From Macrocybe gigantea (Eukaryota > Basidiomycota > Agaricomycetes > Agaricales > Callistosporiaceae), in NCBI GenBank assembly GCA_011319805.1, contig SJRY01000249.1, positions 1 through 64,000 on the forward strand: DNA of 64,000 bases, read 5' to 3'. A program made the translations under genes and the position numbers. Positions 18,107-30,968 of the stretch are shown one piece after another; the first letter of the stretch is position 1, and each line of letters starts with the position of its first letter. The notes below the pieces were generated by a model. The model worked only from the letters and a program-made list of their open reading frames with translations. It had not been told where the DNA came from and did not search any database.

Positions 18107-18485
18107 TCAATCACTGACTAGTGTGGATCCGTCTTTTTTCGTGTCCGAAGGATATTTGGGAGTAGGGCTGTTGTTGATGCTCATAAAGAGAGCAAGCTTG
18201 TCGACGGTCCGCCCGCTTCCAGCTTTTTCGCCTTGTAGCAAGACCTGCTCCAGATATCCCCCTTTGTCTACCTCAGACACAGCCTTCTGTTTCAAAAGCT
18301 TGGTCACATGGCCGTTGAGAAAGTAAATGTTGAGGTCACTCTGGACTGCTGCGCCCAAGTAGTCGAGGGCAACTCGGTTAGCGATTAGGTCGCTGATGCA
18401 GCGCCTTGCGTCCTGTTGGGCACAAATGGCCTCCGGAAACAAATCCTTCTGGGACATCACCGGCAGCAACTTGGCGAGGGTCACA
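18107..18485 (-). pseudogene. 3' part of a small gene split by a retrotransposon
   Basis: Encodes about 125 residues from TLAKLLPVMSQKDLFPEA to KKDGSTLVSD and stop. The upstream end coincides exactly with the TCACA target duplication of the inserted element (18481-18485). Joining it to the piece beginning at 30969 gives an uninterrupted frame through FFNYV-TLAKLL. The product (about 164 aa, mostly helical in appearance) was not recognised. The frame has no stop or shift, so the insertion is either recent or the truncated part is still under constraint. Confidence 0.7.
18481..18485 (+). repeat. Target-site duplication TCACA, left copy
   Basis: TCACA directly precedes the LTR start TGTTGG at 18486. 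The same five bases directly follow the 3' LTR at 30964-30968. A 5-bp duplication is typical for Ty1/copia integrase. Confidence 0.9.
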
Positions 18486-18525
18486 TGTTGGAACGCATCG
18501 CAGCGGATTCGTAGGATTACATAAG
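18486..18525 (+). repeat. 5' LTR, first 40 bp
   Basis: The 40 bp from TGTTGGAACGC to ATTACATAAG are identical to the first 40 bp of the 3' LTR (30734-30773). The LTR is then cut by the LINE and resumes at 25682. Confidence 0.93.
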
Positions 18526-18660
18526 ACAAATGACAAATATTTATTCCTGACTATGTCAGCGGATGACTCAGGTACATAGGAGAACTACGACCTCGCCAGG
18601 ACTTCAAGTAAATAAAGAAAATAAAGAAAATAAAGAAAATGAAGAAAATGAAGAAAACAA

Positions 18661-20382
18661 TTAAGTTTGAAGTAAGTCGAGGACATATGGGGGAATAGTG
18701 GATTCCGGTCGAGGTTTACGGCGTTGTTGGAATCGATGTTGTCGAGCTATACCCCAAATGCGGCCAGCGAGATGTATAGAGGCGGTATGAAAGAGGCTGG
18801 CGACTCGAGAGTGGAAGCGAGTTGAGAGAGCGAAAGGTCGAAGAGAGGGAAGAAAACCAAGATAGAAAAAGGAAGAACCAGTAGGCCATATATCAGAATT
18901 GGAAAAGATACGAGATGCAAACGTGAGAAGATTATCGCGAACGGCAGGCGAAAGAGAAGGCGGGAAATCAGAGAATAAAGAAGTAAGGAGGGATTCTGAT
19001 GCTTCATGTCGGTGAGAGTCGAAATGAGGGCAGGAGGTGAAAATGTGATGAACCGTTTCATCGACCGGACATCCAAAACGGCAAGAGCGTTGAGAGTGGT
19101 CCGAAAACCGACAGCTGAGTTTGGCGTTCGAGTCCAATTGACCAGAGTGAGCATAAAGTTGGATCTGGGCCGAATATGAGTGTAGCGCACGAGTGTATGG
19201 ATAAAGAGGCGGAGGTGTGTCATCATATAGAGTTGGCGACACAAGGCGCTTTTGCCATACGTGATATGTGCGAAGAAAATGATGGGCTTCAAGATCGGCC
19301 AATAAGTGAGGAACACCATGTTCAATAAAGCCATGACATCTCATCCAGAGGCAATAGGATGGCAAGAAAAAGGTGGGCTGAGGGAAAGCAGGAATTAAAG
19401 CAGGAGGATGAGAATGGGAGGCGAGGTGATCAGCTGCATGGTTAAGGCACGCCTCAAGTGATGAGGAAGCGGTGTGAGCGCGAGTGTGCTGGATAACAGG
19501 CGTAGAGGTATAGCGGTGAAGGATGTCAAGGAGCCAACGGTGCAATGCATGATTGGGTTTAGGAATGGAAGCCGATGCCCAACGGGTAATTGCAAGGTAG
19601 TCCGTAAGGATGGTAGCATGTGGATTCGGGAGAGCAAGGAGACAGGCAGTAAGACAGCCCGCAATCTCTGCATATCCGACATTGGCAACAGTAGGGTAAC
19701 CCGAGATGGACATAGACACCGCTGAGCTTGGCGTGATAACTGCAGATGTGAGAGAGGTCGAAGGGGAAAACGGGACCACAGCATGAGAGACAAGAGAAGC
19801 ATCAGAAGCGAAGAAGTCGGCAGAAGAGCGATGACTATGAAAGTTAAACAACAAGGATGGTAGAAAAGTGAGATAATTTTCGGCAATTTCTTGACGTAAA
19901 TGCGAAGGGAGAAGTAGGAGAGGAAACGGTTTGAGATGAGTTGCGACATATTCAAAGGAAGAGATAAACCAGTGGAGAAGTTGGAGCCAGTCACGATTAA
20001 TATGCGGTGGATAGGAGCTGAAATCGAGATAAACATGATGAAAAGATATTTGATAGGAGGAAGTGAAGGAGAAGATGCCGTAGTTAGCGAGGTGAGTAAG
20101 CTGGTGGCGGCGAAGGCGGGCAAGAAGATGGCGGGAAATGTGAGGTAGTAAAGGAAAAAGCTGTTCAATGATATTGGCGAAGTGTTCAAGAGCTAGAAGA
20201 GGAGAAACGAGAAAGGAGAAGTCGGTAGGGAAAACAGATAATGAATAAGAATAAAGAGCTTGAGAAGCGAAAATCCAGGTAGCGGGAAAACGGTGAAGAA
20301 GGCGGGACGAAACAACAGGTGTGGGTGGATGAGAAAAAGGGGAGAGGCAGGTGTTATGGGAACAAGACCAATCATTGTGAGT
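18661..20382 (-). pseudogene. LINE ORF2, C-terminal part: RNase H and zinc knuckle
   Basis: About 570 uninterrupted codons beginning THNDWSCSHNTCLSPF at the inversion joint. An RNase H-like domain is seen with acidic residues in the usual order: FFASDASLVS, GYAEIAGCLTACLLAL, TILTDYLAITRWAS and CLNHAADHLAS. A C-terminal CCHC knuckle reads CRFGCPVDETVHHIFTSC. It ends STIPPYVLDLLQT at 18661. The apparent extension into a poly-valine run is only the microsatellite read as GTT. It is severed from its own N-terminal half, which lies inverted to the right. Confidence 0.85.
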
Positions 20383-20499
20383 AACAACAACAACAACAAC
20401 AACAACAACAACAACAACAACAACAACAACAACAACAACAACAACAACAACAACAACAACAACAACAACAACAACAACAACAACAACAACAACAACAAC
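20383..20499 (+). repeat. (AAC)39 microsatellite at the LINE inversion joint
   Basis: Thirty-nine perfect AAC triplets (117 bp) separate the two inverted halves of the LINE. Read on either strand it gives false poly-Asn, poly-Val or poly-Leu frames. Perfect repeats of this length are usually unstable, so the copy number may vary. Confidence 0.95.
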
Positions 20500-20679
20500 C
20501 ACCATCTCGTTCGCCCGTCCGGCCTAACCGCCACTTCTCTACGTCTATTTCGCCATAATTGTTATCTTACATTCATCCTACATTCATCTATAATCACCAT
20601 CAGTTTCTTAATCCACCGTTTCTCGCGTCCGCACCAGGTCCCTGTGTGGAAAACAGATCAACCTTCGGTCTGAGACACC

Positions 20680-29800: not shown

Positions 29801-30659
29801 TGTCGGCATTCAGATCCGCTGCGATCGCGAAAATCGTACACTTCATTTATCCCAGACAGCCCTGATTGATCGCATTGTTTCCACATTTTGCCCTTCTGGT
29901 GCCTTGGTTTCCACGCCCATGGATAGCAATATCAAACTCGAGCGCCCGCCTTCATTGCCGCTTTCCCCCACCGAAATCGCTCACTTGAAGGCTCTCCCTT
30001 ACCGCTCCCTTGTCGGCTCCCTCATGTACGTCGCAGTTGGCTCCCGACCAGACATAAGCTTTGCAGTATCCAAACTTGCCCAATTCCTGGACTGTTACCG
30101 TGATGAACACTGGACGGCTGCTTTATGAGTTGCACGATACCTGGCTGCCACTCGCGATTTCGAACTCACATTGGGAGGACCTGATGCTCTCACTCTAGCC
30201 GGTTTCTCTGATTCTTCTTATGCAGACTGCCCTGACACTCGTCGATCAACAATGGGCTATTGCTTCTCCCTAGGTTCCGGTGTTATTTCCTGGTCATCAC
30301 GTAAGCAAAAAACTGTCTCTTTGTCCTCCTGCGAAGCGGAATACGTTGCTATCTGTGAAGCTGCTCGGGAACTCTCATGGCTAAGGTCGCTTCTCGGGGA
30401 GACTGCTCTACTGCCACCTGGGGCACCAACCCTGTTCTGCGACAACAATGGCGCTATGGACCTGGCGAAGGATCTGGTCTTACACAGCCGCAGCAAATAT
30501 ATCGACATCAAATATCATTACATTCGTGATCAAGTCGAGGCAGGCAAGATCGAGATCGCTCGCATTGACTCAAAAAACAATGTTGCCGATATCTTCACTA
30601 AGCCGCTCTCGCGTGACTCTTTCGAACGCTTACGCAAAATGTTAGGGGTGTCGGGCTGA
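26881..30659 (+). pseudogene. Copia pol: protease, integrase, reverse transcriptase, RNase H (inactive as sequenced)
   Basis: Protease: CPFLIDSGCTTHIS (catalytic DSG). Integrase: a pre-integrase region LATWHKRLGHVNYQSIMDLS with CEHCIMGK, then VWVDLTGPE, FRLDRGEIAASSDF and GKVERTHRTV as the DDE residues. Reverse transcriptase: VEQADVKGAYLYGLLP, QRGLYGMKQSGRIWNK and the VHVDDFLFTG box. RNase H: GFSDSSYADCPDTRRSTMGY, SSCEAEYVAICEAARELSWL and HYIRDQVEAGKIEIARIDSK. Frame changes occur near 28,715, 28,830, 28,920 and 29,737. TGA replaces an expected Arg at 29263 (after WVYRLK) and at about 30126 (before VARYLA). It ends at the stop at 30659. Confidence 0.88.
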
Positions 30660-30724
30660 GTTTGAGGAGGAGTTTTCTCTGTGTGCCTTTTTTTTTTTTT
30701 TTTTCTCTTTCCACTCGCCGCGAT

Positions 30725-30733
30725 GAGGAGGAG
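30725..30733 (+). other. Polypurine tract of the copia element
   Basis: GAGGAGGAG lies immediately before the 3' LTR start TGTTGG, the expected site for plus-strand DNA priming. A pyrimidine-rich T run precedes it at about 30690. Confidence 0.7.
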
Positions 30734-30963
30734 TGTTGGAACGCATCGCAGCGGATTCGTAGGATTACATAAGGACACTACAGAAGACGTGACGGCGGGC
30801 GTCACCATCCTCAGTTGCTACGCTCACCATGCGACTGAGGTATGTGTGCCCGCCGTTCATATCAGTCTATATAGCTTACAGTTTACCTACAGGACGTGTC
30901 GTAGGTTAGTATTAGAGTTGCTACGCTCACCACGCAACTGAGGACGTGTCGTAGTTTCTAACA
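30734..30963 (+). repeat. 3' LTR (230 bp)
   Basis: Complete LTR from TGTTGGAACG to TTTCTAACA. It is used here as the reference for reconstructing the interrupted 5' LTR. Confidence 0.95.
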
Positions 30964-30968
30964 TCACA
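30964..30968 (+). repeat. Target-site duplication TCACA, right copy
   Basis: Directly follows the 3' LTR and matches 18481-18485. Confidence 0.9.

What the first reader, a model, noticed from the sequence alone, without database searches (positions are those of the whole stretch)
18481..30968. Nested retrotransposons inside a still-open host reading frame
The copia element has a perfect TCACA duplication. Deleting 18486-30968 (the element plus one duplication copy) joins FFNYV (minus strand, right side) to TLAKLLPVMSQK (left side) without a shift or stop. Its 5' LTR is split by a LINE flanked by ATAAG, and collapsing that restores a 230-bp LTR of exactly the same length as the 3' LTR. This gives a clear order: host gene, then copia insertion, then LINE insertion.
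Basis: partly seen in the sequence, partly recalled or inferred. Interest (0 to 1): 0.82.

Follow-up and report, generated by a model that had tools for sequence, protein, structure and literature searches.

The report
Nested jumping genes, one part-inverted
In what looks like a mushroom-type fungus a copia retrotransposon landed in a small open reading frame and was then hit by a second element (a LINE) whose front part is flipped; a sister contig still carries the uninterrupted frame, so the order of events can be read directly.

Summary
Both duplications (TCACA, ATAAG) and the 230-bp LTR are as described. A sister contig of the same assembly (C216, 97-100% identical, colinear) has the empty site: one TCACA and an uninterrupted 140-codon frame. 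The order frame, copia, LINE holds.

Three corrections.

(1) The "host gene" is doubtful. About 97 codons resemble the start of a frame at a helicase/AAA-ATPase locus and the last 38 the 3' end of an unrelated gene. The two copies differ by 3 amino-acid-changing and 1 silent change, and the one protein search found no homologue.

(2) The LINE's 5' ~5.3 kb is inverted relative to its 3' ~1.9 kb, with 7-9 bp lost at the join. In 52 of 52 protein relatives matching both parts, and in 3 of 3 same-genome copies seen to cross the join, the order is normal. One 4-5-bp duplication flanks the whole. Twin priming fits best, although PMC4245944 suggests that ~5-nt overhangs may be too short for it.

(3) The sister copy is not pristine: a MULE carrying gypsy-type domains sits ~140 bp upstream of its ATG.

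Nested transposons are ordinary; the inverted LINE is the part worth following.

The parts
30969..31012 (-). first 14 codons and 2 bases of the interrupted ORF (ATG at 31012-31010)
   Evidence: contiguous with the rest in C216
18107..18485 (-). remainder of the interrupted ORF (125 codons from 18484, stop at 18109-18107)
   Evidence: 98% identical frame on C216
18481..18485 (.). left copy of the copia target-site duplication TCACA
18486..18525 (+). first 40 bp of the copia 5' LTR, ending in the left ATAAG copy (18521-18525)
18526..20384 (-). LINE 3' part (post-RT region and 3' end), in LINE sense on the minus strand; RNase H by the names of some relatives only (no Pfam hit)
20383..20499 (+). 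(AAC)n run at the LINE 5' end; similarity to the C301 and C205 copies also begins with such a run
20385..25676 (+). LINE 5' part (5' end, ORF1, N-terminal ORF2 in several frames, RT), inverted relative to the 3' part
20674..22434 (+). LINE ORF1 (587 aa open frame)
   Evidence: no Pfam family
23994..25676 (+). LINE reverse-transcriptase part of ORF2 (RVT_1, E 4.3e-8)
25677..25871 (+). right ATAAG copy (25677-25681) and the remaining 190 bp of the copia 5' LTR
25872..25884 (+). putative primer-binding site GGTTATGGGCCCC directly after the 5' LTR; resemblance to the anticodon region of initiator tRNA-Met (half-tRNA priming) is recalled, not tested
   Evidence: sequence
25950..27047 (+). copia gag (Retrotran_gag_2, E 1.1e-14)
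26816..28717 (+). copia pol, first piece (Pol_BBD, gag_pre-integrs, SH3-like above cut-off; integrase core 29.7 bits, below its cut-off of 32.6)
29266..29862 (+). copia reverse transcriptase piece (RVT_2, E 3e-38), in another frame
30129..30656 (+). copia C-terminal pol piece; RNase H by position only (no Pfam hit above cut-off)
30734..30963 (+). copia 3' LTR, 230 bp, intact
30964..30968 (.). right copy of TCACA
31143..31151 (.). single copy of the 9-bp site (GACCCGAGA) that is duplicated around an 11,982-bp MULE-plus-gypsy-type insertion on C216; empty in the window

Best explanation
A copia-type LTR retrotransposon integrated, antisense and with a 5-bp duplication, at codon 15-16 of a small ORF on one of two nearly identical copies of this region (probably the two parental haplotypes of a basidiomycete). 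Later a LINE inserted into its 5' LTR by target-primed reverse transcription. During that event a second cDNA appears to have been primed from the other target end inside the RNA (twin priming), so the 5' ~5.3 kb was laid down inverted while the 3' ~1.9 kb kept the normal orientation. Shown: both duplications, the empty site for each element, the orientation switch, and the near-lossless internal join. Inferred: allelism of C216, target-primed and twin-primed synthesis as the route, and that the ORF is probably a chimeric relic rather than a working gene.
For: Empty site and intact ORF on C216, which aligns in order with window 13781-59415 (159 mismatches in 31,847 aligned bases, summed from the bins). 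Uncut LTR target at 8 of 9 outside LTR-like places, the ninth not checked. The LINE 3' part reads on the minus strand and the 5' part on the plus strand. In C326 the two are joined in normal order with 7 nt between them. Four same-genome loci were tested with both protein pieces: C326, C233 and C327 run from RT straight into the 3' part in one orientation, while the fourth, C301, does not reach the join. Of 110 protein relatives 52 match both parts; 52 of 52 have RT first, and in 43 of 52 exactly 3 residues lie between the two window pieces. One end of the inverted piece lies at the duplication, and its other end, the element's own (AAC)n 5' end, is joined to the 3' part, as twin priming predicts. 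The two other copia copies examined have their own 5-bp duplications and 0 and 1 LTR differences.
Against: The duplication round the LINE is only 4-5 bp (one base is ambiguous). PMC4245944 (section 16 read) suggests that ~5-nt overhangs may be too short to prime the second cDNA and saw no inversion with ZfL2-1, a LINE with 5-bp duplications. The C326 relative shows no clear match between the target end and the RNA at the priming point (judged by eye); the window copy's own lost bases are unknown. On C301 a divergent minus-strand LINE piece also lies upstream of a plus-strand 5' part, unresolved. Without reads an assembly error cannot be excluded. The RNA polymerase large-subunit domain is found at three places only, as expected for a collapsed assembly, so C216 could be a recent duplication rather than an allele.
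Confidence: 0.72

Rival explanations
1. The LINE inserted normally on the minus strand, and a later DNA rearrangement inverted its 5' part.
For: It gives the same final order of pieces; the region is rich in insertions.
Against: It needs one breakpoint exactly at the element's 5' end next to the duplication and a second with only 7-9 bp lost. In the self-comparison of 18521-25681 the inverted matches were at most 21 bp and none joins the two breakpoints; the flanks beyond were not compared.
Confidence: 0.12
2. Two independent LINE fragments, or an assembly join, happen to lie head to head.
For: Assembly contig only, no reads; on C301 a divergent LINE-like minus-strand piece also lies upstream of a 5' part.
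Against: The two pieces are complementary to within 3 codons of a single ORF2 and share one duplication pair around both.
Confidence: 0.1
3. C216 is a paralogous segmental duplication, so the empty site is not allelic.
For: The control domain PF00623 is found at three places only, so the assembly is mostly not split into haplotypes; one control only.
Against: In order over 45.6 kb of window, with mismatch per 2-kb bin between 0 and 1.8%. C216:30312 matches window 1001, so some 30 kb of C216, not examined, lie beyond the left end of C248, as an unpurged haplotig could.
Confidence: 0.2
4. The interrupted ORF is a functional gene knocked out on one haplotype.
For: 140 codons open on C216 from an ATG near the start of the similarity to the C271 frame.
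Against: Chimeric make-up; 3 non-synonymous and 1 synonymous differences between the copies, too few for a test; ORF length alone is not unusual here (62 stop-to-stop frames of 150 aa or more in 64 kb); C216 has a 12-kb insertion ~140 bp upstream of the ATG.
Confidence: 0.2

Closest known systems
5'-inverted LINE-1 insertions / twin priming (Ostertag and Kazazian 2001; seen only as a citation inside PMC4245944, PMC6895275, PMC5389967 and PMC2718515)
   Same: Inverted 5' part, direct 3' part, one target-site duplication around both, small loss at the internal join (the small loss is recalled for L1).
   Different: A LINE whose named relatives are basidiomycete, no poly(A) tail at the 3' end, both cDNAs together covering nearly the whole element including its 5' end, and a duplication of only 4-5 bp rather than the 10-20 bp of human L1 inversions (PMC4245944).
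Ty1/copia LTR retrotransposons (Pseudoviridae)
   Same: gag, integrase region, RVT_2 order; 5-bp duplications; TG...CA LTR ends; other copies in the genome with 0 and 1 LTR differences.
   Different: Nothing unusual; the window copy is broken in pol and its 5' LTR is split.
Nested transposon clusters (classically maize; recalled, not looked up)
   Same: Successive insertions ordered by nesting.
   Different: Here the two copies of the locus carry different nested pairs with target sites about 175 bp apart.
LINEs related to P0001-P0110
   Same: 34-75% identical RT regions; names shown include Gymnopilus, Sparassis, Hebeloma and Mycena; RT followed by the 3' part in one protein in 52 of 110.
   Different: The window copy has ORF2 in several frames and is internally inverted.

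Membership tests
Ty1/copia LTR retrotransposon | Two LTRs with TG...CA ends and a short target duplication | tested here: met
   230-bp LTRs, 5-bp TCACA; CGCTG and CACCA at two other copies
Ty1/copia LTR retrotransposon | Integrase upstream of reverse transcriptase | tested here: met
   gag_pre-integrs, Pol_BBD and SH3 above cut-off and integrase core just below cut-off (29.7 of 32.6 bits) at 26816-28717; RVT_2 at 29266-29862
Non-LTR retrotransposon (LINE) | Reverse transcriptase of RVT_1 type, no LTRs, target duplication | tested here: met
   RVT_1 E 4.3e-8; ATAAG duplication; no long direct terminal repeats in the self-comparison
Non-LTR retrotransposon (LINE) | Endonuclease domain | tested here: inconclusive
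   No Pfam hit at E 0.01 in three frame pieces 22365-24270; relatives P0099 (named Endonuclease/exonuclease/...) and P0107 (PF03372) suggest one
Tad clade of fungal LINEs | Phylogenetic placement of RT | not tested
   No tree built; the clade name is a recalled lead
Twin-primed 5' inversion | 5' part inverted, 3' part direct, breakpoints close together in the element | tested here: met
Twin-primed 5' inversion | One target duplication around the whole | tested here: met
   ATAAG 18521-18525 / 25677-25681; uncut at 8 of 9 outside LTR-like places, the ninth not checked
Twin-primed 5' inversion | Pairing of the second target end with the RNA at the internal priming point | tested here: inconclusive
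   C326 relative shows no clear match by eye; the window's own lost bases are unknown
Protein-coding host gene | Homologues or purifying selection | tested here: inconclusive
   Partial paralogues only; 3 N: 1 S differences between copies; no database homologue
Mutator-like element (C216 insertion) | 9-bp duplication, terminal inverted repeats, MULE transposase | tested here: met
   GACCCGAGA twice; ends match at 22 of 26 bases; PF10551 E 1.5e-8

The most novel reading that the evidence does not exclude
Twin priming operates in a fungal LINE with only a 4-5-nt target overhang, and can copy the element almost whole (loss of 7-9 bp) as two head-to-head cDNAs. That would contradict the proposal that such short overhangs cannot prime the second cDNA.
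Probability: 0.45. Interest if true: 0.5.

Novelty: new member of a known kind. Interest (0 to 1): 0.38.

Why it matters
The empty-site contig turns a sequence-only guess into a tested insertion history. The inverted LINE is a concrete counter-case to the idea that 5' inversion needs the long overhangs of human L1, and relatives of this LINE occur in many named mushroom genomes, so how often it happens can be counted. In five searches of the held library (listings only) I saw no listed title or abstract start on twin priming in fungi; most subscription papers are not held, so this is weak evidence of absence.

Tried and rejected
Homologues of the interrupted ORF: the search with its 125-residue left piece had 5 candidates and none scored. 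One sub-threshold Pfam hit (ATLF, 14.6 bits against a cut-off of 27.4) was rejected as chance and not pursued. No Pfam family at E 1 for the two C271 pieces, the C113 frame or the neighbouring C216 ORF. ORF length as evidence of a gene was rejected, because long frames are common in this window. Dating by LTRs: 3 of 230 sites (1.3%) against a mismatch of 0-1.8% per 2-kb bin between the two copies is too few events to order the copia insertion against the split of the copies. Clade assignment of the LINE was not attempted beyond similarity. In one search both LINE pieces were compared with all 110 hits; 58 did not match both pieces at E 1e-4 and were left out of the order count, and 9 of the remaining 52 have matches that start too late or stop too early for the gap to be read. 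In one search only four of the LINE loci were tested with the protein pieces.

Full report
The copia element is bounded by TCACA (18481-18485, 30964-30968). Its 3' LTR is 30734-30963, and its 5' LTR is cut after 40 bp and resumes at 25677 with a repeated ATAAG; without the repeat it is 230 bp and differs from the 3' LTR at 3 sites. Domains are in copia order, the integrase core itself scoring just below its cut-off. In the window copy pol is broken into several frames, whereas the two other copies examined have one long frame each.

The decisive test was the empty site. The window is contig C248:1-64000 of a 41.2-Mb, 333-contig assembly. Searching the flanks in that assembly found contig C216, where the two ORF pieces are contiguous: left piece C216:50476-50850, right flank 50847-51043, overlapping inside the single duplication. 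C216 aligns in order with window 13781-59415 apart from insertions; the blocks of more than 700 bases are 98.9-99.6% identical, a 188-base block right of the site is 97.9%, and the bins add up to 159 mismatches in 31,847 bases. Window 1001-12000 matches C216:30312-44221 in several pieces at 97-99%, and 52001-60979 matches C216:83591-92557 at 100% as rounded. At the site C216 reads as the window flanks joined with one TCACA, identical over 39 bases; a longer 42-base string was not found verbatim because of a mismatch near its outer end. The ORF on C216 runs 140 codons from an ATG to a stop. As a control, the RNA polymerase large-subunit domain PF00623 was found at three places (C262, C318, C62), the number expected of one genome copy (recalled), so the assembly is mostly collapsed. 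C216 is probably an unmerged haplotype, but a recent duplication is not excluded.

Is the ORF a gene? The left piece alone matches a reading frame on C271 (47% over residues 8-82, E 3.2e-12). With the C216 protein the match is 39% over 100 residues starting at the ATG; its first 15 residues, the part right of the copia site, are only weakly alike. Further downstream on the same strand of C271 lie AAA_12 and AAA domains, though that they belong to one gene is inferred. The last 38 residues match, at 61%, the end of an unrelated low-complexity frame on C113, and the DNA match runs on past the stop (239 columns, 77%). The ORF is therefore a fusion of two fragments, with its seam away from the copia site. 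The two copies differ by three amino-acid changes and one silent change. No outside homologue was found. I regard it as more likely a relic or young chimera than a working gene.

The sister copy is not untouched. At the site matching window 31143-31151 it holds 11,982 bp bounded by a 9-bp duplication and inverted ends alike at 22 of 26 bases. Inside are a MULE transposase domain and gag, protease and integrase zinc-binding domains, read as a gypsy-type element. It starts about 140 bp upstream of the ORF's ATG (C216:50895). Both copies thus received a nested pair of elements at sites about 175 bp apart.

The main new observation concerns the LINE. Its 3' part (18526-20384) reads on the minus strand and its 5' part (about 20385-25676) on the plus strand. 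In the C326 copy the two are consecutive, with 7 bases between them. Four same-genome loci were tested by protein comparison: C326, C233 and C327 run straight from RT into the 3' part, and C301 does not reach the join. Of 110 related proteins, 52 match both parts; all 52 have RT first, and in 43 exactly three residues lie between the window's two pieces. The 5' part begins with an (AAC)n run, and similarity to the C301 and C205 copies begins with such a run too, so the inverted piece appears to reach the element's own 5' end. None of the 3' ends printed shows poly(A). The window, C326 and three copies that share one flank (C233, C232, C198) end in ATTTGTC; C137 shows repeats of that unit; the divergent C301 piece differs.

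This geometry is what twin priming predicts: first cDNA from the 3' end, second cDNA primed inside the RNA from the other target end, and joining of the two. A later DNA inversion would need a breakpoint exactly at the element's edge. Against it, PMC4245944 (abstract and passages seen, section 16 read) reports 5' inversions only for human L1 in human cells apart from one Nimb-2_DR insert, mostly with 10-20-bp duplications, and suggests that ~5-nt overhangs may be too short. The duplication here is 4-5 bp, one base being ambiguous because the LINE end can supply the same letter. Either that limit does not hold for this family, or another route made the inversion. One copy is not a survey, and on C301 a second head-to-head arrangement is unresolved.

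The names shown among the relatives of the LINE RT are, as far as I recognise them, mushroom-forming basidiomycetes. Together with an open frame at 10.7-13.1 kb that looks like the recalled basidiomycete spermidine synthase-saccharopine dehydrogenase fusion, this suggests an Agaricomycete.

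Noticed in passing
window 41841; C216:73702-74698: C216 has a 1-kb insertion absent from the window, with 20-bp terminal inverted repeats (AGGTAGGGCTCACAGAAAAC...), probably a small non-autonomous DNA element.
   Followed up: partly
window 49162-50424: About 1.26 kb present in the window and absent from C216, in the lowest-GC kilobase of the window (0.41 at 49-50 kb); type not determined.
   Followed up: no
window 10729-13128: One open frame of 799 aa that looks like spermidine synthase fused to saccharopine dehydrogenase (recalled as typical of basidiomycetes).
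   Followed up: no
window 13781-59415 against C216: Mismatch per 2-kb bin between the two copies is uneven: highest at 30-32 kb (1.8%), about 1% at 16-18 and 48-50 kb, and 0-0.07% at 56-59 kb; perhaps a recombination or assembly boundary to the right.
   Followed up: partly
L038 (C301:104500-113500): Another LINE-like minus-strand 3' piece (31% identical protein) lies upstream of a plus-strand LINE 5' part; head-to-head elements or another inversion, unresolved. The C301 copy seems split further right, its continuations lying about 6 kb apart.
   Followed up: no
window 32518-33822: HMG-box-like protein (PRPRNAFILFR...) in an open frame of 434 aa (motif recalled).
   Followed up: no
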